NCBI GenBank assembly: GCA_947567625.1
Contig: CANONN010000027.1
Coordinates: 1-46,351, forward strand
Length of the DNA: 46,351 bases
DNA from: an uncultured Roseburia sp.
GTDB lineage: Bacteria > Bacillota > Clostridia > Lachnospirales > Lachnospiraceae
Reading direction: 5' to 3'
The notes under the pieces were generated by a model, which saw only the letters and a program-made list of their open reading frames with translations, had not been told where the DNA came from and searched no databases. A program made the position numbers and the translations under genes. How positions within the stretch are numbered: position 1 is the first letter of the stretch; each line of letters starts with the position of its first letter. Below are positions 21,626 through 33,913 of the stretch, in pieces.

Positions 21626-22960
21626 ATGAATAATATGTTCTATTTGTTAAATTTGAGCGTCGCCGGAATCAAGAACCTGAAAGAAGAAGTCCGTCTCGAT
21701 TTTTATAAGAAAACGGTCAATAAAAATTTCAATCCAAATAAGTACAGAATCAAAGCCATATACGGGGAAAATGGTTCCGGGAAATCCGCGATTATTACAG
21801 CGGTAAAGATTTTTCAGGATTTGATCACCTATGACAATTATCTCAATGAGTCCAAAACACAAGTATTCCTGGACGAAATTATAAACAAATCAACAAAAAC
21901 CTTTCAATTTCAATGCGAGTTTCTCGTCGATTTGAATGTCTCTCGTATCGTTTACAATTATACGATTGTGATAGGCAAAAATGATAATGGACTATATGCC
22001 ATCCAATACGAGCTGTTAAAAACCAAAAACGGAAATTATGCCAACCATAAATACGAAACCGTATTTGAATGTAAAAATGGTGAATTATTGCAAGCCAGAT
22101 GCAGCGAGCATGAATGGAACGTTCTGGAGAAAAAGTCCATTAATCTCTTATCGGCCCACTCTTTGATTTATATATACATTACAAATACGAAAAAATATGC
22201 CGCTTACGAGGATGAACAAGACAAAGCATTATTTATGAATATCTTACTTTGCGCCATGCTGACAATCACCATTCGCGTATATCTTGCAGAAGAAGATCAA
22301 CATGAAATATACTTTCTGGAAAAACGCTTAAAAGAAAATAACTTAAATAACCAGGCATTACAGGAAGGAATCTGGAGCTATGAAGAATTTACCAATGTAT
22401 TTGCCAGCGTCAACGAAAGAAAAGTAAAAAAAACAGAGTTTGATAATTACAAACACAAAATAGAACAATTAACTCAATTCATAAAAATTTTTAAGCCAGA
22501 CTTAGTTTCCATAGATATTGATACGAAAGAAAACGGGGAGCAATATGAATGTGACTTAAATCTAAATTATGGAGCTTACAGAATAAACAAAGAGTTTGAA
22601 AGTACCGGCATCAAGAAATTAATCCGTCTGTTTGATTGTTTTACGGCCGCGAGCAAAATGGGCATCGTGTTTGTTGACGAGATGGATTCCAACCTAAATG
22701 ATGTTTACTTATGCAAATTAATCGAATATTTCATGTACTATGGAACGGGACAGCTATGCTTTACCACACACAATTTAGACCCCATGACGATACTAAAAGA
22801 AAATAAAAATTCCATCGATTTTTTATCAAGCGATCATCACCTAGTCCCTTGGACATCCAGAGGAAATGCCTCGCCGGAGCATTGCTATAAAAATGGAATG
22901 ATAGAAGATTCACCGTTTAACATTGATGCCACTGATTTTGTGGGAATTTTAGGGGAGTAA
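21626..22960 (+). CDS. AAA/ABC-type ATPase of a possible two-gene defence system
   Basis: A 444-residue ATPase of the AAA_15/AAA_21 (OLD- and AbiL-like) kind. Walker A is YGENGSGKS (46-54). An ABC-like signature STGIKKL is at about 322-328, Walker B is GIVFVDEMDSN (346-356), and a switch His sits in FTTHNLD (382). The middle, about 90-320, is variable. Base composition is clearly more AT-rich than the flanking nad and recombinase genes, indicating acquisition. The second gene starts 4 bp after this stop with its ribosome binding site inside the last codons. Such ATPases pair with TOPRIM nucleases in AbiL, RloAB-like and PARIS systems; which of these it belongs to cannot be settled by eye. Confidence 0.8.
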   Translation: MNNMFYLLNLSVAGIKNLKEEVRLDFYKKTVNKNFNPNKYRIKAIYGENGSGKSAIITAVKIFQDLITYDNYLNESKTQVFLDEIINKSTKTFQFQCEFLVDLNVSRIVYNYTIVIGKNDNGLYAIQYELLKTKNGNYANHKYETVFECKNGELLQARCSEHEWNVLEKKSINLLSAHSLIYIYITNTKKYAAYEDEQDKALFMNILLCAMLTITIRVYLAEEDQHEIYFLEKRLKENNLNNQALQEGIWSYEEFTNVFASVNERKVKKTEFDNYKHKIEQLTQFIKIFKPDLVSIDIDTKENGEQYECDLNLNYGAYRINKEFESTGIKKLIRLFDCFTAASKMGIVFVDEMDSNLNDVYLCKLIEYFMYYGTGQLCFTTHNLDPMTILKENKNSIDFLSSDHHLVPWTSRGNASPEHCYKNGMIEDSPFNIDATDFVGILGE

Positions 22961-22964
22961 AAAT

Positions 22965-23495
22965 ATGGCAATGCAAATGATACTTTGCGTAGAAACAAAC
23001 AAAAGAGCCGATACTGACAGTATCTATATTTTAGAAACAATCCGTCATTGGTATGAATTACCAAACCAAATCAAGATCAGTAAAGTATATATGAACACAA
23101 AATCAAGGTATAATTCCAAAGATGTGATAAAAGAAATACGCCAAAAATCAAAGACTTTTACTTTTGGTGAAACAAGAGTCATTTATTGTATTGACACAGA
23201 TCAATATGAAAAAAATATGGAGCATTTGAAAGAGCTTCAAACTATCCGTCAATATTGTGAGGACAATCACTATGACTTAATTTGGTTCTGTCATGATATT
23301 GAAGAAGTATTTTTAGGGCAAAAAATTTTGGATTCTCAAAAAGTAAAAGAAGCTGCAAACTTTAGAAAAAAGAAAACAATCGAAAAATGTCATTGGGAAC
23401 ATTTGTCTTGCCATGAAATGCGTGCATATTCCAGCAATATTCTAAGTATACTGGATAAGTATTTAATCAGAAAGAATGATAAGCAGAGCCAGTGA
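22965..23495 (+). CDS. RloB-like small TOPRIM-type protein, probable effector of the ATPase pair
   Basis: A 176-residue protein. ILCVETNKRADTDSIYI puts a Glu (residue 10) where TOPRIM domains have their first acidic residue. VIYCIDTDQYEKN gives the D-x-D pair (77, 79), and WFCHDIEEVFLG (107-118) resembles the conserved aromatic-acidic segment of RloB proteins. TOPRIM proteins of this kind cut RNA or DNA when released by their ATPase partner; activity here is inferred from context. GGGGAG lies seven bases before the ATG and overlaps the ATPase stop. AT-rich like its partner. No other family is suggested. Confidence 0.65.
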   Translation: MAMQMILCVETNKRADTDSIYILETIRHWYELPNQIKISKVYMNTKSRYNSKDVIKEIRQKSKTFTFGETRVIYCIDTDQYEKNMEHLKELQTIRQYCEDNHYDLIWFCHDIEEVFLGQKILDSQKVKEAANFRKKKTIEKCHWEHLSCHEMRAYSSNILSILDKYLIRKNDKQSQ

Positions 23496-23529
23496 ACGCT
23501 TGTCTGTTCTATCAGAGTTGGAGACCCCC

Positions 23530-24996
23530 ATGAAAACAGGCGCCCTCTACATACGCGTGTCAACCGATAAACAAGAAGAGCTCTCCCCGGATGCGCAAAT
23601 CCGCGAGGGAAGAGCTTTTGCCCAAAAGAATCATATCACGATTCCAGACGATTATATCTTTCGCGACGACGGCATTTCCGGGCGGAAGGCCCAAAAACGG
23701 CCCGCGTTCCAGCAGCTCATCGGACTGGCCAAATCCAAAGAGCACCCGATCGACTGCATCATCGTCTGGAAGTTTTCACGTTTTGCCCGCAATCAGGAGG
23801 AAAGTATTGTATACAAGTCCCTGCTGCAAAAAAACAAGGTGGAAGTCTTAAGTGTGTCCGAGCCGTTGGTTGACGGCCCGTTTGGCAGTCTGATCGAGCG
23901 GATCATCGAGTGGATGGACGAATACTACTCCATCCGCCTCTCAGGCGAAGTCGTGCGCGGCATGACGGAAAATGCCATGCGCGGCAAATACCAGGCAGCC
24001 CCTCCCATCGGCTATAAAGCTGCGGGCGGCGGCCTTCCCCCAGAGAAAGACCCTGACACACTGCCGATCGTAGAATACATCGTGAAAAGCTTTTTAGACG
24101 GGCATATGACGCCGCGCGCCATCGCCGTGAATCTAAACGCCATGGGATACCGCACAAAGCGCGGGAATCTTTACGATGCGAGAGCCGTCCGCTACATTCT
24201 CTCAAACCCGTTTTACGCCGGAAAAAACCGCTGGAATTTCAGCGGCAGAGACCGCGCGCTAAAGTCTGCGGAAGCAGTCATATATGCGGACGGCAAGTGG
24301 GAACCCCTCTATTCAATGGAAACCTATGATTTGATCAAAAAGCAACTGGACGAACTGGACAACATCCATCTTCGCAACGGCCGCCGCTTAAACGACAGCG
24401 GCAGCTATAAGCACTGGCTGTCCGGCCTGATTGTCTGCTCCGCCTGCAAAAGAACGCTCGCCTGCACCGGCGGCAAAAAGAACCGCGGCATGAATTGCTG
24501 GGCTTACCAAAAGGGTCTCTGCAAAGAATCCCACTACATCGGCATCGCCTCCCTGGAGTCGAGCATTATCGAGGGCATGGAACGCCTCTTGACCTCCGAC
24601 CGCATCCCCTATAAAATCGTGCACACTGCCCCGGCCGCACCCGACAAAGAAACGGAGCTGCGCCACATGCTCACACACCTAAACGAGCGTGAGAAGCGTG
24701 CAAAAGACGCCTATTTCAATGAGATCGATTCCCTGGAGGAATACCGGGAAAACCGCTTACAGATCAACACCGAGCGCGCCCGCCTTGAGGCCGAGCTTTG
24801 CGCCTTAACAAGTGGCGACAGCACCCCGCCAGATGATGCGCGCATGGTTGCAAACGTCAGGGAAGCGCTTTGCACAATCAAAGACGAAACCTCTGATTTC
24901 AACGAAAAGGCACGGGCCATGCGCAGCATCGTGGAAAAAATCGTATTTGACCGCAAAAATACCAGCTTCGATTTTTATCTGAAGCTGGTAAAATAG
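23530..24996 (+). CDS. Serine site-specific recombinase (large serine integrase type)
   Basis: A 488-residue recombinase. The resolvase domain starts GALYIRVSTDKQ with catalytic Ser11 and includes FRDDGISGRKAQKRPAFQQL and VWKFSRFARNQEE. The recombinase domain spans about 150-290, a zinc ribbon CSACKRTL...NCWAYQKGLC lies around 308-340, and a coiled coil is at about 370-420. The start at 23530 has GGAG upstream and gives the canonical N-terminus; a longer frame to 23476 overlaps the TOPRIM gene. It is convergent with the cotJ operon, and its stop is 24 bp from the broken end of cotJC. That parallels skin-type elements, in which the recombinase lies next to an interrupted sporulation gene. Base composition resembles the chromosome, not the AT-rich pair before it. 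Confidence 0.92.
   Translation: MKTGALYIRVSTDKQEELSPDAQIREGRAFAQKNHITIPDDYIFRDDGISGRKAQKRPAFQQLIGLAKSKEHPIDCIIVWKFSRFARNQEESIVYKSLLQKNKVEVLSVSEPLVDGPFGSLIERIIEWMDEYYSIRLSGEVVRGMTENAMRGKYQAAPPIGYKAAGGGLPPEKDPDTLPIVEYIVKSFLDGHMTPRAIAVNLNAMGYRTKRGNLYDARAVRYILSNPFYAGKNRWNFSGRDRALKSAEAVIYADGKWEPLYSMETYDLIKKQLDELDNIHLRNGRRLNDSGSYKHWLSGLIVCSACKRTLACTGGKKNRGMNCWAYQKGLCKESHYIGIASLESSIIEGMERLLTSDRIPYKIVHTAPAAPDKETELRHMLTHLNEREKRAKDAYFNEIDSLEEYRENRLQINTERARLEAELCALTSGDSTPPDDARMVANVREALCTIKDETSDFNEKARAMRSIVEKIVFDRKNTSFDFYLKLVK
24961..24989. repeat. Inverted repeat at the recombinase 3' end
   Basis: Perfect 9-bp arms ACCAGCTTC (24961-24969) and GAAGCTGGT (24981-24989) around an AT-rich 11-base loop, in the last codons of the recombinase and about 30 bp from the cotJC break. 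It may be a terminator for the shortened cotJ transcript or part of an attachment site. Confidence 0.5.
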
Positions 24997-25715: not shown

Positions 25716-25828
25716 TTTCACTATATGATCTTACCCAGTCTGTGCACAGCCTGCCGATTTCATTCGATTCTTCTTCTCAATCTGTAAACAGACTGTCGGT
25801 TTCACTATATGATCTTACTCAGTCTGTG
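25716..25828 (-). repeat. Tandem degenerate 42/84-bp repeats at the 3' end of the coiled-coil gene
   Basis: The run TTTCACTATATGATCTTAC plus C/T-CAGTCTGTG occurs at 25716-25744 and again at 25800-25828, exactly 84 bp apart. A less similar unit at half that distance (around 25773-25803) gives an underlying 42-bp period. The right-hand copy is the last codons and stop of the gene at 25805-26983. The left-hand copy repeats those codons and the stop out in the intergenic space. Confidence 0.8.
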
Positions 25829-26983
25829 AATCGACTGTAAGATTTCCTGCAACTGCGGTTTCATGCGCGTATCGGTCACTTTGGCGATTGCCTGCTCCGC
25901 CTCGCGCTCCATCTGGCGTATGTTGACAAGATTAAACTTCAGACGGTCTCTGAGCTTTTGCCGTCTGGTGACCAAATCATGCTTGATCTCCACCATTTCC
26001 TTGGGTTCAATCAGCGCCATCACCTGCGAAATCCAGATCTGGGGATCGTAGAGCTTAAACTGAGCCAGCATACGCACCAGACGGCCGTTAAAATATTCCA
26101 GGTCTTCGCTGGTTCTCTGATATTTCTCGCGCTCCTTGACCGCCTCCAAATAGTATTCCCAGAGCTGGTTCAACTCTTTGGCGTTCCTCGCGTGATACTT
26201 TTCACAGGCATAGTCGATGGCGTTGGCAATATTGACATATTTTATTTTGACTTTATTTTGCAAAAGAATCGCGCGGTTCATATTCTTCTCCGCAACGATA
26301 AAATCGGAATCGTCATTCTGTACCTTAAACAATACACAGCAGACCGCAGCGACCGTGACGATCATAAGCACAATCCATGCATTGTAGGTGTCCATGCGAA
26401 AGACAAACTGTAACAGCAGCAGCGTGACAGCCACCGTCGCCGCCAGACCAAAACAGACATAGACCAGATTTTTGAGATTGCGCTTGTGGCTGCCAAGATA
26501 CTCACGGTGCAGTGTCCACTCCGCCTTTTCCCGCTCCAGATAATTCATATCTTTCTTTAGCGTGTCGCGGTAGACTTCATTTGCCGCCAGACGCTTGATC
26601 GCCGCCGGTATGTCGTCTTTCTGGCTCTCGAGCTGTGCAAACTGTACATCCGTAAGTTTGCGGGTCGAATTTAGGAAATCATTGCGCGCCGTATTCAACT
26701 GGACGACATTCACTGCCGTCTCCGTCACCTTTTTCTTCTCCTCCTCCGAAAGATTCTCCAGAATCTGTATATCGTTGAGGTAAGAATTGATCTTTTTGTA
26801 CTCGCTCTTTTCCTCCTCCACTTCTCTGGCCAGCTCTATGATCTGCTCTAAGCGCTCCACCACATACTGTTCGATTTTATTGGCATTTTTCGCGTCTTTT
26901 CCGGTGATTGCGACACCGGCCGCGCCGAACCGCTCATTCAACTGCTGTTCTTTTTTCTTCCACCTGCCCCGAAATAAACCCAT
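25805..26983 (-). CDS. Coiled-coil membrane protein of unknown function, last gene of the DUF5716/DUF5717-like operon
   Basis: A 392-residue protein with basic N-terminus (MGLFRGRWKKKEQQ), heptad-rich helices at about 35-165, two adjacent membrane segments at about 171-192 (NLVYVCFGLAATVAVTLLLL) and 200-220 (AWIVLMIVTVAAVCCVLF), then a second long helical region to the end. Both soluble arms should lie in the cytoplasm if the helices form a hairpin. I recognise no enzyme motif. It follows the TPR gene by 76 bp, containing the leader hairpin at 27000-27013. AGAGG lies seven bases before the ATG. A structural or anchoring role for the operon's soluble proteins is inference. Confidence 0.75.
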   Translation of the reverse strand: MGLFRGRWKKKEQQLNERFGAAGVAITGKDAKNANKIEQYVVERLEQIIELAREVEEEKSEYKKINSYLNDIQILENLSEEEKKKVTETAVNVVQLNTARNDFLNSTRKLTDVQFAQLESQKDDIPAAIKRLAANEVYRDTLKKDMNYLEREKAEWTLHREYLGSHKRNLKNLVYVCFGLAATVAVTLLLLQFVFRMDTYNAWIVLMIVTVAAVCCVLFKVQNDDSDFIVAEKNMNRAILLQNKVKIKYVNIANAIDYACEKYHARNAKELNQLWEYYLEAVKEREKYQRTSEDLEYFNGRLVRMLAQFKLYDPQIWISQVMALIEPKEMVEIKHDLVTRRQKLRDRLKFNLVNIRQMEREAEQAIAKVTDTRMKPQLQEILQSIHRLSKII

Positions 26984-26999
26984 ACTATCCTCTCATTCC

Positions 27000-27013
27000 G
27001 CCGCGCAAGCGGC
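27000..27013 (-). repeat. GCCGC/GCGGC leader hairpin, copy 2
   Basis: On the minus strand GCCGC-ttgc-GCGGC followed by GGAATGAGAGG and the start codon at 26983. It shares about 25 bases, including the GGAATGAGAGG flank, with the copy at 46185-46198. Confidence 0.75.
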
Positions 27014-27059
27014 CTTTTATTGCGTCGAAAATCAATCCTGCTACATTCTAGTTTTGGCG

Positions 27060-27860
27060 TCACAAACACTGTTTGCGGTAATCTTCCTGCCAGTACAAAA
27101 GATTCTGCTTCATCCACACCGCAGCCTTGGCCTGGCCGGCGTTTTGCGCGAGAACTTTGATGCTCTCATCAAAATTTTGCAAGCGCTCATCCCGAAACAC
27201 CTCTCGGTACTGCTCTAAAAGCGCCGCCGTCTGCGGCTTATCCAACGGCCGTTCACTCTCCTCGAGGCATGCCTTGGCATAGAGCGCCGACTCTAGCGAC
27301 TCTTGTCTGCCGCCCAGCCGGAAAGCATTCTGATAACATTCGATCGCTTCCGCAAACAAAAACAAATGCGCATAGACCGTACCCAGATTATGCCAGATCA
27401 GCCCCGCCTCCTTGGGATGCCCCTGCAGCTCTTTCATCTGCAAAAGGCGCAGATATTCATACATGCCGCTCACATACTTTTTATTTTCCACATAGCGGTC
27501 CGCTCGTATCTTAATCCGTTCATAGAACGGTTTTTGCTCCATCTCCCGCAGCCCTGCCACGATCGCGGCGCGGCTTACGCCACTGCAATACCCCGCCTCT
27601 TTCAGCAGACAGTCCACATATTCCGCCAGTTTTCCGCCGCCCTCCCGGATTTTGCGCAATCGTTTGGCAAGCTCCTCCTGTTTTAACTGTTCCGCAATCC
27701 AGCCGCAAAGCTCGTCGCTCATAAATTCCTCTGTGATCAGACAGACATTGTGCTCGATAAAATAACTGAGCTCCTCCAAAGAATAAATATTCAGCGATAC
27801 TTCCTCAAAATAATAAGGCATTGCGGCAAGCATCTGATTGCACAAAATCAATTCTCCCAT
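27060..27860 (-). CDS. TPR-like protein of unknown function
   Basis: A 266-residue, mostly helical protein. A tetratricopeptide-like pair is clear at about residues 150-185 (GLIWHNLGTVYAHLFLFAEAIECYQNAFRLG). The N-terminal 60 residues (LCNQMLAAMPYYFEEVSLNIYSLEELSYFIEHN) look like a separate small conserved domain. No catalytic motif is seen. It starts 15 bp after the Hsp70-like gene and has only a weak GTGGGGT site, so coupled translation is likely. TPR proteins commonly bind chaperone tails or assemble complexes, which fits a partner of the Hsp70-like protein, but this is inference. Confidence 0.75.
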   Translation of the reverse strand: MGELILCNQMLAAMPYYFEEVSLNIYSLEELSYFIEHNVCLITEEFMSDELCGWIAEQLKQEELAKRLRKIREGGGKLAEYVDCLLKEAGYCSGVSRAAIVAGLREMEQKPFYERIKIRADRYVENKKYVSGMYEYLRLLQMKELQGHPKEAGLIWHNLGTVYAHLFLFAEAIECYQNAFRLGGRQESLESALYAKACLEESERPLDKPQTAALLEQYREVFRDERLQNFDESIKVLAQNAGQAKAAVWMKQNLLYWQEDYRKQCL

Positions 27861-27875
27861 TGTATGACCCCACGC

Positions 27876-29102
27876 TTACATAGACATGATGTGTTCCCAC
27901 ACCCTGTCCGTACTCTGAAACAACTCTCCGAATCCCATATCTTTCAATGTCACCTTTACCTGCGTGTCCGAGAGAGGCTTGGCCACAATCCGCAGTCTCG
28001 TGACTTTTTCGGGTCGGTCCGGGAAATTGGACAGCTCTAGCTTTTCCACCTGGGCTTCTCCGTGATCGGGCGCTTGCAGCCAAAAATCGACCTCCGGCGT
28101 GCCGTTTAAAATAACTTCGCACTCTCCCACTTTTTCAAACCAGTTATCCCCGGCGTTAATCAGGGTATAAAACTCCTGTTTTCCCCTATTTTGCACTCTG
28201 ATGCTGACATTCATCTTCATCTCCGAGGCGCCCATGTAGATAAACGGCCAGTACGCCGTCTTTGCCCTTACGGCGGCGCCATAGCAGGCGCCTTTTGCGT
28301 AAAGATTTTTGCCGACAAATACCCGGCTGATACGGCAGAGATATTTGAGCGATTCCTTCATCCATCCCTCGTCAAAGCCATCCCCTACCAGGTAGGTGGT
28401 CGACACCGCCCTCCCCTTCGACACGGTCTGCACAATCTTTAAAAACAGCTCGTCCGTCAGCGGCGCCTCCAGGTCGACCTCCTCCTCGAGCAGCGTCACC
28501 AGCTTGGGCGCGGTGTTGCGGTTGCACTCCATGCGGCGGCAGATTAAGGTCTTTCCCCGGTAATCAAACAGACACACGTCATGTAAATATAATTCTTCTT
28601 TCTGCGAATACACAAAATAATAGAAGCTCTCTTTCCTGTCCATCAGCGTAACCTGACTTCTCTCAAGCCCCAGCTGCGGCGCCATGGACAAAAACAGCTC
28701 TGATTTTTCCCTGGTCAAAGATTCCAGAGAGATCACCAGCAGATCAGGCACAACCGGCTTTTGCAGGCTGCCCGCCAAAAACATCATTTTTTTGATGAAC
28801 AGGCATAAGAGCTCTCTGTAAGAATAGCTCTCGTCTCCGAGCACCGCCGTCTCCCCATCTAACGCCCGCGCTAAAAGCCGCTCGGCAACTGCGGCGCTGC
28901 CCTCTTTTACAGCCGCCGTCGCCTCTTCCCCGACACACCACTGTGAAGTCCCCGTTTTTTTGGCAATGCAAAGAGGAATCAAAAAATGCTCGCTTCCGGC
29001 CACCGTGCTCACAGTCTCCGGCTCTTTTTTGCTCAACTGATAAAAACTGACGATCACATTGTTTTCATCCATGTCAATTCCCAGATAAAAGTGCTGCTCC
29101 AT
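27876..29102 (-). CDS. Hsp70/actin-fold (ASKHA) ATPase-like protein, DUF5716-like
   Basis: A 408-residue protein beginning with a phosphate-1-type motif YLGIDMDENNVIVSFYQ (Hsp70: GIDLG-TNS-VA). A phosphate-2-like DVCLFDYRGKTLICRR comes near residue 190, and an adenosine-type TTYLVGDGFDEGWMKESL near 260. After that comes a beta-rich region (about 300-400: MNVSIRVQNRGKQEFYTLINAG...EVILNGTPEVDFWLQAP) resembling an Hsp70 substrate domain. I believe this corresponds to Pfam DUF5716, from memory. No DnaJ or GrpE is nearby. ATG 29102 is preferred over GTG 29105 since GGGAGG lies six bases upstream. It sits between the large TPR-like gene and the small TPR gene. Confidence 0.75.
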   Translation of the reverse strand: MEQHFYLGIDMDENNVIVSFYQLSKKEPETVSTVAGSEHFLIPLCIAKKTGTSQWCVGEEATAAVKEGSAAVAERLLARALDGETAVLGDESYSYRELLCLFIKKMMFLAGSLQKPVVPDLLVISLESLTREKSELFLSMAPQLGLERSQVTLMDRKESFYYFVYSQKEELYLHDVCLFDYRGKTLICRRMECNRNTAPKLVTLLEEEVDLEAPLTDELFLKIVQTVSKGRAVSTTYLVGDGFDEGWMKESLKYLCRISRVFVGKNLYAKGACYGAAVRAKTAYWPFIYMGASEMKMNVSIRVQNRGKQEFYTLINAGDNWFEKVGECEVILNGTPEVDFWLQAPDHGEAQVEKLELSNFPDRPEKVTRLRIVAKPLSDTQVKVTLKDMGFGELFQSTDRVWEHIMSM

Positions 29103-29138
29103 CACTGGCCTCCCATCGTTATTGTTCGCGGCGCAATT

Positions 29139-32100
29139 TTATTGCAGATGAAACAATCGGCTCGTCACTTCCTCCACGCGCCTGTATTTCTTCACCTGCT
29201 GCATAAGTTTCTCGTAATTTCCATGGGCAAACGCTTCGTCCGCCAAAGACAGCACACCGTATCTGCCCCTCAACGCTTCCGGCTTCACCCGCTTCTTCAC
29301 CAGGCATCCGCTCTCCGTCGTCTCCTCGCGTCCCCCGTCGTCCTCCGTTATATAGTACTGTATCCGCTCCCCCAAAAACAAGGTGAAATCTTTTACAAAT
29401 ATGCCGTCGTACATCTCCGTCATCTCTTCGGTTAAAAACTCCCCGCCTTCCCTGCGCCATGTGATACGCACCCGCCTGGCGGGCTCTGTGTGGTATTCCA
29501 CAAAATCCCTGTCATGCAGATGATATTTTTCCAGCAGCCGCACCGGAAATTTTTGATAAAAAGCAAAATACATGCCCTGGATGGCAAAGGTCGAAAAAAG
29601 CTGCGCCAAAACCTGCGCCTGCCGCTCGGTCTCCGGCGGTTTTTCAGAAAAATGCTTTAAGAGCCCGAGCCGGCAGGTATCGTTTAGCTGTTTCCCCTGG
29701 CTCACCGCCTCATAAATCCGGGTCATCACATGAGCGGGTATCACCGCATCCCAGATCAGGTATTGATTGGAAAACCAGGTCAGATACGCCATGGCTACCA
29801 TCTCATTTTGGCCCCTCGAACAGTAACTGTCAAAAATCTCCTCGGCATAAACCGTATAGTCCGTGGTGTACAAAAACTGTGTCAGGATACGCTCCTCCAG
29901 ATCAAACGTATCTAAAAGCTGCTCCTCCGCCGCTTTCCACACCGCCGCCATGGTATGCGTCGCCCCCTGATAATAGCGGCTCAAATAGATCAAAAGCGTC
30001 TCATTTTTGCTGCCCGCCGCAAATAGACAGGCGGCAAAATCCGTCAAAAAGTCGTCTTCCTCATAGTCTGCCTCCGTGATCGCAAAAATGCAGATCGACT
30101 CGAGCACCGGAAGCGGCATAAAATCATAGCCGTACTCCCGCACCATGCGATAGGCAAGCTCGTCCTTGCCGCACTCCTTTGCAATGGCGATGGCCTTGCG
30201 CCGATTTACGGCGCTGATCTGTGAAAAATCAAGCATCTCCATGTACTGCTTCATGTCGCGCACGATACCGTGGGTGTGACACAGAAGAATCATCTGAAAC
30301 AGCAGCTCGGCGCGAAACCGCTCTCCGGTGGCATCCGCCGCTAAAAAACGCATGACCGTCTGCCGGTCCGTCATCACAAATTCCAGATTATTTCTTTTGG
30401 AAAGGAGCCAGTAAAAAATATAATCGATATTTAACGGCGCCAGCTCCAGGCAGCGGCTGATGCACCCGGCCGGATGTAATAGCTGCTGCACCTGATATGG
30501 GATACCGCCGGCGTAATAATTGCCCTGGTTATCCACAAGAATCACTTCAAACTCCTCGGTGTACGCCTGAAAATACGCCGTCTGATCGTTAAGGCTCACC
30601 ACCTTGGGTTCTTTCTGCCACGGCGTGAGAATGAGCGCACGCGCGACGGCGGGATTGCTGCAGGTGAGTTTCCAGGTAAACAGGATTTTCGAGAGCCCTT
30701 CCGCCAGCTCATCGCTCAAAAATCCGCTGCGGATGATCTGCTGGTAAATGACCGCCAGATTGTCATCCACATGGCCGGAAAGAATCTGCTCCATGGCAAA
30801 CTGCTCGATACTGCTTTTATAATTCTGGTAGATCTCCGGGTCCTTCTCCCGCTGTGCAATGATATTCACATAGAGCACCGCCTTCTGTTTGGCCGGCAGC
30901 CCGCTGTCATACCGAAAATACATTTGCAGCATACGGGGCACGCTCCCGACCTCCCTGCTGCTCAAAGACATAAGGTACGCCTCATAGAGCCCCGTCATAT
31001 GCAGTTCCGCGCGTATGCCCGCCTCATACCAGGCGCGGTATTCCGGCCCGTAACACTGCCCCTTGATCAGATAACCGCAGATGGCGCTAAGCATCGCCGT
31101 ATGGCTGTACACCTCATAGCAGGCTTTTAAAATGCGGTAGATATCCTTGTTAAATTCGCGCACGCCGGCAACCAGGCCGCACACCTGCTCCGCAACACTC
31201 TGTGACAACGCCCCATGCTTTGCGGCCCAGTTTAAGATCTCCCGCTCAAACGTCCCCAATTTCCCCAAAAGATAGGGTTCTTTCTGGTAAATATAATAGG
31301 CTTCGACATAAAAATACGGACTCTTATAGCCTTCGGCGGTCCATACCTCGATGGCGCGAAGCTTCATCGAGGATTTTTGATCGTACTCCTCGCGCAAAAA
31401 GAGAAGAATCCAAAAGAGCAGCGGACTTTTGGCGTGGCTTAGAAACAGCGCTTCGATCTCCTCTGTCATGTGTTCCACAAAAATCGCATCCCGGTCCATC
31501 AGCGTACACAGGTAGAGATAATATCCCCACAACGGCACATCTCTCGCCGGCTGGCTGCGCTTATATTCCTGCATAATCCACTCTGCTTCCTGCCGCTGAT
31601 TGTTGATGATAAACGCCTGCGCTTTCATCAGCGCATAAAAATCATTGTCCTCGTCCAAAGAGATCAAATGATTCAGATATTCCACCGAACGTCCAACCCA
31701 GACGCCGGTGACGATTTTATTGAGACGATAATCAATATAAAGCCGGGCCAGGCGCATATGCGCTTCCCGCTTTTGCTGATGCGCAGAGAGCCTGTCCGCC
31801 CGCACATAATCCTTTTGCGTCGCACAGACCTCATACGCCACCTGTTCCCCGTAATAACGGAAATACAGCCTGCCGTAATTGTTGCCCGCATGAAGCTGCT
31901 CTGCCTCAATATAATATTCAAACATACACACGCTGCCCATAAAATCCTCAGCGCGCAGACGCTTTTTCGACGGCACCAAAAAGGCGGCGTCCGACTCCAC
32001 CGTGATATCGAGATAACCCCATTCGCTGCGCCTTAGCTCAAGCTGCTCTTTGCGGCTCGCAAGAATCCCCACAAACTCTGCATACTGCTTCTCCAGCGTG

Positions 32101-32678
32101 AGAAGCACCGGCTGCTTTTTGTCGCAGCCGATCAAAAATTCTTCGATTTTTTGCGCCGTGGCCGGTTCCCGGCACAGGCCGTCATATAAGAGCGCGATCC
32201 TGCTCTCTTCTCTCTGCAATATATTTTTAAAATTGGGAGAATAGAAAAGCCGCACGGCCTCGCGCATATCTTCTTTTGCCAGCCGGACGAAATCATGTAA
32301 ACTGGCCACCTTGCCGACGCTCGTATCCGCGCATACGGAAACGACAGAGACGACAAAAGGGAGCGCATATTCTTCCTGATTCAATACGAAGTAAAACTCT
32401 CCTTTGACTACGTCCCCCACGGCAAGCCCGTTACTGTGAAACTGATAACGAACCACGGCGTGGCTGCCCTCGAGATGAGGGGTCAGACATTCCATGCGCC
32501 AGGAGGAGGTATGTACCAATCCCCGCATCGGCACATGGCCGGCGCCGGTCACGGTAAACTCTCCCGCATAATCCCTGACACCGCTTAGCACGATCTTAAC
32601 GCATTGGGTCTGAAACGAAACCTCTGGCTTATGATATTCAAATTTTCCGACTGCAAGCTGCTGTATTGTTTTTCGCAA
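29139..32678 (-). CDS. Large multidomain protein of unknown function, DUF5717-like, first gene of the operon
   Basis: An 1179-residue soluble protein without signal peptide. About 1-330 is beta-rich and resembles tandem immunoglobulin-like modules (FEYHKPEVSFQTQCVKIVLSG, later FEYYIEAEQLHAGNNYGRLYFRYYG). About 330-1000 is alpha-helical with TPR-like periodicity (LARLYIDYRLNKIV, DFYALMKAQAFIINNQRQEAEWIM). The last 150 residues return to beta strands. I believe it matches Pfam DUF5717, common in Lachnospiraceae, but could not check. The start is a TTG at 32678 with AGGTG five bases upstream. With the three genes after it this is a cytoplasm-to-membrane system whose purpose is unknown. Confidence 0.75.
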   Translation of the reverse strand: MRKTIQQLAVGKFEYHKPEVSFQTQCVKIVLSGVRDYAGEFTVTGAGHVPMRGLVHTSSWRMECLTPHLEGSHAVVRYQFHSNGLAVGDVVKGEFYFVLNQEEYALPFVVSVVSVCADTSVGKVASLHDFVRLAKEDMREAVRLFYSPNFKNILQREESRIALLYDGLCREPATAQKIEEFLIGCDKKQPVLLTLEKQYAEFVGILASRKEQLELRRSEWGYLDITVESDAAFLVPSKKRLRAEDFMGSVCMFEYYIEAEQLHAGNNYGRLYFRYYGEQVAYEVCATQKDYVRADRLSAHQQKREAHMRLARLYIDYRLNKIVTGVWVGRSVEYLNHLISLDEDNDFYALMKAQAFIINNQRQEAEWIMQEYKRSQPARDVPLWGYYLYLCTLMDRDAIFVEHMTEEIEALFLSHAKSPLLFWILLFLREEYDQKSSMKLRAIEVWTAEGYKSPYFYVEAYYIYQKEPYLLGKLGTFEREILNWAAKHGALSQSVAEQVCGLVAGVREFNKDIYRILKACYEVYSHTAMLSAICGYLIKGQCYGPEYRAWYEAGIRAELHMTGLYEAYLMSLSSREVGSVPRMLQMYFRYDSGLPAKQKAVLYVNIIAQREKDPEIYQNYKSSIEQFAMEQILSGHVDDNLAVIYQQIIRSGFLSDELAEGLSKILFTWKLTCSNPAVARALILTPWQKEPKVVSLNDQTAYFQAYTEEFEVILVDNQGNYYAGGIPYQVQQLLHPAGCISRCLELAPLNIDYIFYWLLSKRNNLEFVMTDRQTVMRFLAADATGERFRAELLFQMILLCHTHGIVRDMKQYMEMLDFSQISAVNRRKAIAIAKECGKDELAYRMVREYGYDFMPLPVLESICIFAITEADYEEDDFLTDFAACLFAAGSKNETLLIYLSRYYQGATHTMAAVWKAAEEQLLDTFDLEERILTQFLYTTDYTVYAEEIFDSYCSRGQNEMVAMAYLTWFSNQYLIWDAVIPAHVMTRIYEAVSQGKQLNDTCRLGLLKHFSEKPPETERQAQVLAQLFSTFAIQGMYFAFYQKFPVRLLEKYHLHDRDFVEYHTEPARRVRITWRREGGEFLTEEMTEMYDGIFVKDFTLFLGERIQYYITEDDGGREETTESGCLVKKRVKPEALRGRYGVLSLADEAFAHGNYEKLMQQVKKYRRVEEVTSRLFHLQ

Positions 32679-32735: not shown

Positions 32736-32821
32736 CTTTTTTACTGCTTTTTTATCACTTCAGTTGATTTTTTGTAAGCAATAGTTATAATAAATTATAA
32801 ACTAAAATGGAGGAGTAATCA

Positions 32822-33913
32822 ATGATAAAACACAAAGACCATTTTCACGGCAGTGATTTGGAGACCATAGAACAAATTTACCATATCCGCAAGGAGGAGA
32901 TCGTAAGCTTTTCCGCCAATGTCAACCCTCTGGGCGTCTCTCCCCTGCTGCGGGAGGCCCTCGCCGGACAGATCGACGCGATCACCACATACCCGGACCG
33001 CGAGTACACCTCTCTGCGCAAACGCATCGCGGCCTACTGTGACACCGACTACGAAAATGTGATCGTCGGCAACGGCTCCACGGAGCTGATCTCGCTTTTT
33101 ATCCAGATCGAACATCCCAAAAAAGCGCTCGTGATCGGCCCCACCTACTCCGAGTACGAGCGCGAGATCGCACTCGGCGGCGGCAGCACGCTCTACTATC
33201 CGCTGCGCGAGGAGGACGACTTTCAACTGAACGTTTCGGACTTTCTGTCCAATTTGAATGAAAGTATTGACCTGTTAGTACTGTGCAATCCCAACAATCC
33301 CACTTCCTCCTGCATCAACAAAAGAGAAATGCGCCGGATTTTGGACGCCTGCAAGCAGTACGACATCTATGTGATGGTGGACGAGACCTATGTGGAATTT
33401 GCAGACAATCAAAAAGAGATCTCGGCGGTTTCCCTCTCCAACTATTACAACAATATCATCATCCTGCGCGGCACTTCCAAATTCTTCGCCGCGCCGGGCC
33501 TGCGCCTGGGCTACGCCATCACAGGAAATCGTGATTTAATTAAGTCCATCAACACGCGCAAAAACCCGTGGACCATCAATTCTCTCGCCGTGGTTGCCGG
33601 GGAGACCATGTTTGCGGACACCGCCTATATCAACGCCACAAAGGCGCTGATTTCCGCGGAGCGAGCGAGAATCTATGATGTATTTGCCGCTCACCCCGAT
33701 TTTAAAGTGTACAAGCCCAACGGGAATTTCATGTTGGCCCACATATTAAATGACAATTTAACTTCAGGAGAACTCTTTGACCGGGCAATACGTCAGAAGA
33801 TGATGATTCGCGACTGTTCCACCTTTCCATTTCTGGACAATAAATACATCCGCTTCTGCTTTATGTCAAAAGAAGACAATGACAGATTGATGCGATGTCT
33901 GCTCGGTTCATGA
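32822..33913 (+). CDS. PLP-dependent aminotransferase, HisC/CobD-like
   Basis: A 363-residue class I/II aminotransferase-fold protein. It has the N-terminal FSANVNPLGVSP of HisC/CobD proteins, a GNGSTELISLF loop, CNPNNPTSS, the PLP-contacting DETYVEF and the Schiff-base Lys in RGTSKFFAAPGLRLGY. The early HFHGSD resembles the HGG of threonine-phosphate decarboxylase (CobD). Neither histidine nor cobalamin genes are nearby, so histidinol-phosphate aminotransferase and L-threonine-O-3-phosphate decarboxylase both remain possible. A GGAGGAG site lies six bases upstream of the ATG. Confidence 0.85.
   Translation: MIKHKDHFHGSDLETIEQIYHIRKEEIVSFSANVNPLGVSPLLREALAGQIDAITTYPDREYTSLRKRIAAYCDTDYENVIVGNGSTELISLFIQIEHPKKALVIGPTYSEYEREIALGGGSTLYYPLREEDDFQLNVSDFLSNLNESIDLLVLCNPNNPTSSCINKREMRRILDACKQYDIYVMVDETYVEFADNQKEISAVSLSNYYNNIIILRGTSKFFAAPGLRLGYAITGNRDLIKSINTRKNPWTINSLAVVAGETMFADTAYINATKALISAERARIYDVFAAHPDFKVYKPNGNFMLAHILNDNLTSGELFDRAIRQKMMIRDCSTFPFLDNKYIRFCFMSKEDNDRLMRCLLGS

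What the first reader, a model, noticed from the sequence alone, without database searches (positions are those of the whole stretch)
25805..32678. Four-gene operon pairing an Hsp70/actin-like ATPase with TPR proteins and a membrane coiled-coil protein
Seen: four collinear genes with short gaps encode an 1179-residue beta plus TPR-like protein, an ASKHA-type ATPase with phosphate-1, phosphate-2 and adenosine motifs, a TPR protein and a two-helix membrane coiled-coil protein. Known: Hsp70-like proteins act with TPR co-factors. Family names DUF5716/DUF5717 come from memory. Inference: a dedicated, uncharacterised chaperone-like or cytoskeletal machine anchored at the membrane. No DnaJ, GrpE or obvious client is encoded beside it.
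Basis: partly seen in the sequence, partly recalled or inferred. Interest (0 to 1): 0.75.

Follow-up and report, generated by a model that had tools for sequence, protein, structure and literature searches.

The report
Operon built around a dead Hsp70
Most sampled genera of one bacterial family carry an unstudied gene set built around a chaperone-like protein whose ATP-splitting site has decayed, while related families keep a larger set with intact chaperone genes from which it apparently came, which suggests a chaperone turned into a structural part.

Summary
The four-gene operon is real: DUF5717 (A), DUF5716 (B), a TPR-like protein (C) and a two-helix membrane coiled-coil protein (D). The ASKHA fold is confirmed, specifically as Hsp70, but 'ATPase' is not supported: the GTT and GGGT phosphate-loop motifs occur in 0 of 39 family B proteins, and B lacks some 70-100 residues (subdomain IIB region) that most of its orthologs keep. 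A and B are each in 117 of 120 sampled genera of the window's family (inferred: Lachnospiraceae), both in 116. C follows or is fused to B in 41 of 41 loci read. D is in 53 of 120, so membrane anchoring is optional. Other Lachnospirales genomes that have the locus carry a longer form: A usually split, three Hsp70s with intact motifs, a GrpE-domain protein, a motif-degenerate Hsp70 (ortholog of B), C, sometimes D. The window's family has apparently lost the active Hsp70s and kept the degenerate one. Four B-C gene fusions suggest contact. Best reading: a non-hydrolysing Hsp70 scaffold, working like fungal Ssz1, held on a large TPR protein. The process served is unknown.

The parts
29139..32678 (-). 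A: DUF5717 protein, 1179 aa; residues 1-290 match the separate protein A1 of other families, residues 304-1132 match A2, a TPR-like solenoid with a C-terminal beta domain (seen in an AlphaFold model of an A2 relative, not of A itself)
   Evidence: ORF; PF18984/PF18983; BLAST to A1 and A2; for A2
27876..29105 (-). B: DUF5716 protein, 409 aa, degenerate Hsp70 (nucleotide-binding-domain-like 4-283, beta domain 299-408, no lid); phosphate-1 GIDMDENN at residue 9, phosphate-2 FDYRGKT at 180, adenosine VGDGF at 240
27060..27860 (-). C: 266 aa, lineage-specific N-terminal domain plus a TPR match under the Pfam cut-off; its long-form counterpart is clearly TPR
25805..26983 (-). D: 392 aa coiled-coil-like protein with a two-helix membrane hairpin near residues 173 and 203; facultative member
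32794..32822 (-). sigma-70-like promoter match (TTGATT-17-TATAAT) upstream of A; consensus match only

Best explanation
The operon encodes a reduced form of an order-specific Hsp70 machine. B (DUF5716) is a degenerate Hsp70 that no longer hydrolyses ATP. It serves as a fixed structural subunit: its remnant nucleotide-binding and beta domains hold C and dock on A, a large TPR-solenoid scaffold, and D tethers the assembly to the membrane in the fewer than half of genera that have it. SHOWN by calculation: Hsp70 ancestry of B; loss of catalytic motifs and of part of the IIB region; orthology to one specific Hsp70 of a longer locus; no ortholog of the locus Hsp70a in 120 genomes of the family; co-conservation of A, B and C; B-C fusions. 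INFERRED: no ATP hydrolysis, direct A-B-C contact, scaffold role, loss (rather than never having had) of the other Hsp70s. UNKNOWN: the client or process. The mode of action proposed is that of Ssz1, the atypical non-hydrolysing Hsp70 of the fungal ribosome-associated complex, without a J-protein partner in the locus.
Against: No biochemistry. Absence of ATPase is inferred from motifs; a PDB title says that Thr204 of Hsc70 is not essential for hydrolysis. The window B keeps a Thr in its phosphate-2 stretch (DYRGKT), though the family does not conserve it. B is fast-evolving (21-37% identity of other family members to the window B) and the tree warns of long B branches. A few long-form Hsp70b are as short in the same region (range 71-151), so that deletion is not unique to the family. 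The B model was made with 26 long-form Hsp70b rows, so it is not independent of the Hsp70 assignment. No A-B-C-D complex was predicted. The nucleotide-binding part (4-283) and the beta part (290-409) are about equally conserved (1.92 and 1.94 bits per column), so conservation does not single out a binding domain. Two genera, 93% and 98% complete, lack both A and B. Hsp70c, Hsp70d and the GrpE-domain protein were not searched genome-wide in the family beyond the window genome.
Confidence: 0.6

Rival explanations
1. B is still a nucleotide-driven chaperone or switch: it binds and perhaps slowly hydrolyses ATP with a changed active site, and A and C are its co-chaperones.
Against: Thr-Thr of phosphate-1 and Gly-Gly-Gly-Thr of phosphate-2 absent in 39 of 39; part of the region that GrpE-type exchange factors contact (recalled; only titles and abstract starts seen) is missing; no GrpE or J-domain match in A-D.
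Confidence: 0.2
2. A biological-conflict (defence) system related to the GAP1-N2 GTPase systems, whose second theme combines HSP70, GrpE, a truncated HSP70 and beta-sandwich/TPR proteins.
For: The part list of the long form is similar in theme (section 29 of PMC7159879 read). Six of the seven order genomes with a GAP1-M match also carry the A gene.
Against: In those six the GAP1-M match lies on another contig than A; GAP1-M is in 7 of 116 order genomes (5 over cut-off) and in none of the 11 family genomes among them, the window genome included; no PADLOC match for A-D; near-universal presence in the family and, in part of the loci, a conserved place beside cobD-like and valS genes, unlike a patchy mobile defence system.
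Confidence: 0.08
3. A membrane-bound actin-like (MreB/FtsA-type) cytoskeletal filament.
For: ASKHA fold; D is a membrane coiled-coil-like protein where present; long-form Hsp70s also match MreB models weakly.
Against: B carries an Hsp70-type C-terminal beta domain and aligns full length to Hsp70b, with which it groups; no MreB or FtsA match in Pfam for B; D is absent from 67 of 120 genera. MreB and FtsA were not in the tree.
Confidence: 0.04
4. The reduced operon is a decaying remnant of the long-form machine with no selected function.
For: Catalytic motifs and partners missing; B diverges fast; a few A matches carry a stop codon or are split (G061, G045).
Against: A and B are kept by 117 of 120 genera each, nearly all as open frames; 32 columns of B, the start Met included, are at 80% or more identity in 39 sequences.
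Confidence: 0.03

Closest known systems
Ssz1 of the fungal ribosome-associated complex (RAC)
   Same: Atypical Hsp70 that binds ATP with little or no hydrolysis, has a beta substrate-binding-like subdomain and no alpha subdomain (passages of PMC8476630); ranks 1, 3 and 5 of the VIA comparison of B are RAC or Ssz1 entries, tied with DnaK rows
   Different: Eukaryotic, stably bound to the J-protein Zuo1; no J-domain protein found in this locus. B also lacks much of the IIB region, and nothing links it to ribosomes
DnaK-GrpE chaperone system
   Same: The long-form locus has three Hsp70s with intact motifs and a protein ending in a GrpE domain
   Different: Hsp70a ends after the beta domain and Hsp70d has a VWA domain after its Hsp70 part; no J-domain match among the locus genes scanned; the window genome has dnaK and grpE elsewhere
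GAP1-N2 GTPase-centric conflict systems, HSP70/GrpE theme (PMC7159879; passages, section 29)
   Same: HSP70, GrpE, a reduced HSP70, beta-sandwich (FNIII) plus TPR protein; VWA domains in other themes
   Different: No GAP1-M beside the locus; near-universal in one family; found here only in Lachnospirales samples
Specialised bacterial Hsp70s tied to surface functions (StkA of Myxococcus PMC4319316; a DnaK system of cyanobacterial type IV pili PMC9239167; titles and abstract starts only)
   Same: An Hsp70 dedicated to one cellular task
   Different: Not compared by sequence here; no surface function is shown for this locus
Pfam DUF5716 (PF18980) and DUF5717 (PF18984, PF18983)
   Same: Window B and A are members over cut-off
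   Different: Pfam gives no function; the link to Hsp70 and to the long-form locus is added here

Membership tests
Hsp70 superfamily (B) | Hsp70-type nucleotide-binding domain fold | tested here: met
Hsp70 superfamily (B) | C-terminal substrate-binding-type beta domain | tested here: met
   strands 299-408 in the model; alignment to Hb to residue 409 and to Hc to 403
Canonical ATP-hydrolysing Hsp70 (B) | phosphate-1 GTT and phosphate-2 GGGT loops | tested here: not met
   0 of 39 B; 59 of 59 Ha, 33 of 33 Hc, 31 of 31 Hd
Canonical ATP-hydrolysing Hsp70 (B) | complete subdomain IIB, contact of GrpE-type exchange factors | tested here: not met
   gap in the alignment to Hb; median phosphate-2 to adenosine distance 70 against 142 in DnaK; that the region is IIB is recalled
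Ssz1-type atypical Hsp70 (works like) | little or no ATP hydrolysis | not testable with these tools
   needs an enzyme assay; motif loss only suggests it
Ssz1-type atypical Hsp70 | no alpha lid | tested here: met
   B ends with the beta domain at 409
Ssz1-type atypical Hsp70 | stable complex with a J-domain protein | tested here: inconclusive
   no J-domain match among A-D nor the long-form genes scanned; an unlinked partner is not excluded
MreB/FtsA-type actin-like filament proteins | nearer to MreB/FtsA than to Hsp70 | tested here: inconclusive
   the 50 rows shown in each fold comparison are Hsp70-type and B has no MreB or FtsA Pfam match, but MreB and FtsA were not compared directly
GAP1-N2 conflict systems | linked GAP1 gene | tested here: not met
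   GAP1-M (PF20014): no match in the window genome or the 10 other family genomes, 7 of 116 in the order, six of these with A on another contig; the GAP1-N2 domain itself was not searched
GAP1-N2 conflict systems | linked GTPase gene | not tested
   no GTPase search was run
Known anti-phage systems | PADLOC model match | tested here: not met
   0 matches at E up to 1 for A-D

The most novel reading that the evidence does not exclude
A whole bacterial family has turned an Hsp70 chaperone machine into a structural complex. An ancestor within Lachnospirales had one locus making a fixed multi-Hsp70 assembly (three active Hsp70s, one of them fused to a VWA domain, one dead Hsp70, a built-in GrpE, a beta-rich and TPR scaffold). 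The Lachnospiraceae kept only the dead Hsp70 on its scaffold, either as a non-enzymatic core or as a docking site that recruits the general DnaK, as Ssz1 positions Ssb.
Probability: 0.3. Interest if true: 0.8.

Novelty: new variant of a known kind. Interest (0 to 1): 0.62.

Why it matters
Hsp70s that have given up efficient ATP turnover are described in eukaryotes (Ssz1, Sse). Here is a bacterial case that can be followed within one order: long forms with intact Hsp70s plus a degenerate one, a likely intermediate, and a reduced form holding the degenerate one alone. Because the reduced operon is in 116 of 120 sampled genera of its family, its unknown role is likely a basic one, and the prediction (B binds C and A and does not hydrolyse ATP) can be tested directly. 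It also gives a frame to two Pfam families of unknown function.

Full report
OBSERVATION. A is PF18984 plus PF18983 (DUF5717), B is PF18980 (DUF5716_C), C has TPR matches under their cut-offs, D no match over cut-off. NCBIfam gives nothing over cut-off, PADLOC nothing at all. D has two hydrophobic segments; A, B and C none by a simple hydropathy scan. A sigma-70-like match lies upstream of A; the region has more such matches (18) than shuffles (mean 7.5), so it proves little.

CONSERVATION IN THE FAMILY. In 120 genera of the window's own family, PF18984 is found in 117 (99 of 101 near-complete genomes) and PF18980 in 117 (98 of 101). Read together: both in 116; A alone in G098, where A reaches a contig end; B alone in G020 (67% complete); neither in G029 and G091. 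In 40 loci of this family read in full plus the window, A, B and C are collinear in 41 of 41 and D follows in 18. A profile of D finds it in 53 of 120 genera, directly downstream of B on the same strand in 52 of 53, the other split over contigs. B and C are one ORF in four genomes: L055 709 aa, L060 684 aa, L221 713 aa, L222 723 aa.

SPREAD. In the order sample, PF18984 is in 62 of 116 genomes and PF18980 in 59; by my reading of the two tables 58 have both, 4 only A and 1 only B (PF18980 also matches Hsp70c, so it is not specific to B outside the family). All 11 family genomes of that sample have both, so outside the family A is in 51 of 105, one of them under the cut-off. In the class sample 7 of 196, six of them the same family and one weak match outside the order; in the phylum sample 4 of 299, all the same family; 0 of 14 control genomes. 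The N-terminal domain of C is in 10 of 291 class genomes, all 10 of the family. The order is Lachnospirales by named relatives (Defluviitalea, Petrocella).

THE LONG FORM. In other families that have it, A is two genes, A1 (about 400 aa) and A2 (about 900 aa), or one of about 1330 aa, or an A2-like gene of about 930-1010 aa without a recognised A1, and the locus goes on with Hsp70a (558 aa), X, Hsp70b, Hsp70c, Hsp70d, C and sometimes D. X ends in a GrpE domain (PF01025 5.4e-12 to 5.4e-11 in three examples; PDB GrpE 5.3e-6 for the profile). Hsp70d carries a VWA domain after its Hsp70 part. Hsp70b of L087 has both HSP70 and DUF5716_C matches. Of 51 named loci with Hsp70a at 57% identity or more, 21 show A2-Ha-X-Hb-Hc-Hd without interruption, 19 of these with C next and 5 with C-D; 41 show Ha-X; 6 show Ha alone, two of those on contigs of about 5 kb. 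Of 20 unnamed non-family loci 19 have A2 next to Ha (some are the same contigs as named ones). In some genomes of the family that the tool labels f5, A1, A2 and the Hsp70s lie on different contigs, so the genes are kept although not all linked. Below 57% the next Hsp70a matches drop to about 30% in unrelated organisms.

LOSS OF THE ACTIVE PARTS. Searching 120 family genomes with Hsp70a gives a best E-value of 5.4e-56 at 38% identity; the listed rows are 32-41% identical, mostly frames of about 560-660 aa, that is DnaK and paralogs, and 4 genomes have no match. The window genome has a DnaK, two further Hsp70s (one followed by a protein with DnaJ matches, one by a protein that only looks J-like by eye), two remoter matches, and two GrpE matches, one beside dnaK and one beside the Hsp70 on C28; none belongs to this locus. 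The absence of Hsp70c, Hsp70d and X from the family was seen at the locus (41 of 41) and genome-wide in the window genome only; it was not searched in the other 119. The locus of G122 (L080, L101) looks intermediate: full long-form set, shorter X, and the Hsp70b nearest to the window's B among the 13 proteins compared (31% over 192 aa, 8.5e-28), with Hsp70d and C each in two frames there, which may be decay or an assembly error.

VERTICAL INHERITANCE. A cobD/hisC-like gene lies divergently upstream of A in 17 of 41 family loci and 13 of 20 unnamed non-family loci, in two of these about 940 bases away (identity of the gene for two of them). valS-like ORFs (length and KMSKS) lie in the stretch in 12 of 41 family loci and 4 of the 17 stretches (two confirmed). 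So the same neighbours recur in and outside the family, but not everywhere. No relative of window A was found in viral contigs by a scan that reaches close relatives only.

THE SCAFFOLD. The model of a long-form A2 (L140, 907 aa, mean pLDDT 86.7, pTM 0.58) is a helical solenoid with a small beta insertion, a C-terminal beta domain and end helices; fold matches are TPR proteins of many complexes and its profile matches consensus TPRs. A1 is beta-rich by my reading of its conserved pattern; it was not modelled, nor was window A. Window A matches A1 with residues 1-290 and A2 with 304-1132.

MECHANISM. Shown: ancestry, motif loss, orthology, co-conservation, fusion. Inferred: B does not turn over ATP and acts as a fixed subunit contacting C and, through the operon and co-conservation, A; D adds a membrane tether where present. 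The nearest known way of working is Ssz1, which binds ATP with little or no hydrolysis, has a beta subdomain and no alpha subdomain, and interacts with the active Hsp70 Ssb (passages of PMC8476630). It is not filed as an Ssz1 relative: no J-protein partner was found in the locus and the taxa are unrelated. In theme the long form resembles the HSP70/GrpE theme of GAP1-N2 systems (PMC7159879 section 29). GAP1-M is in 7 of 116 order genomes (5 over cut-off) and none of the 11 family genomes; six of the seven do carry A, but on another contig.

VERDICT. Real, near-universal in the sampled genera of its family, chaperone-derived, not a working ATPase by its motifs, only facultatively membrane-linked. 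New variant of a known kind. The process it serves remains open.

Noticed in passing
window 21626-24996 (+): Possible small island beside the operon: an AAA ATPase with AbiLi-like (PADLOC 1.6e-31) and AAA_21 matches, a 176-aa protein without a Pfam, PADLOC or NCBIfam match, and a CcrB-like large serine recombinase.
   Followed up: partly
window genome G000 C28 (L123:8455-11636) and C10 (L124:8689-11651): Two further Hsp70s that group with DnaK. The one on C28 is followed by a protein with DnaJ matches and preceded by a divergent GrpE match; the gene after the one on C10 looks J-like by eye but had no NCBIfam match.
   Followed up: partly
L087:12410-14341 and relatives (gene X): Protein of about 280-650 aa with a GrpE domain at its C-terminus and, in most, a long N-terminal part without a family match.
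   Followed up: partly
L087:17615-19687 and relatives (Hsp70d): Hsp70 in which a VWA domain follows where an alpha lid would be expected.
   Followed up: partly
alignment A2 against alignment A9: Hsp70a of 17 loci is extremely conserved (79% mean column identity) while A2, encoded beside it, is 15-26% identical to the first row.
   Followed up: no
L101:9098-13383 (genome G122): Hsp70d and C genes each split into two frames in a genome whose Hsp70b is nearest to the window's B among those compared; decay or assembly error.
   Followed up: no
window 32822-33913 (+): cobD/hisC-like aminotransferase divergent from A, a recurrent neighbour of this locus across families.
   Followed up: partly
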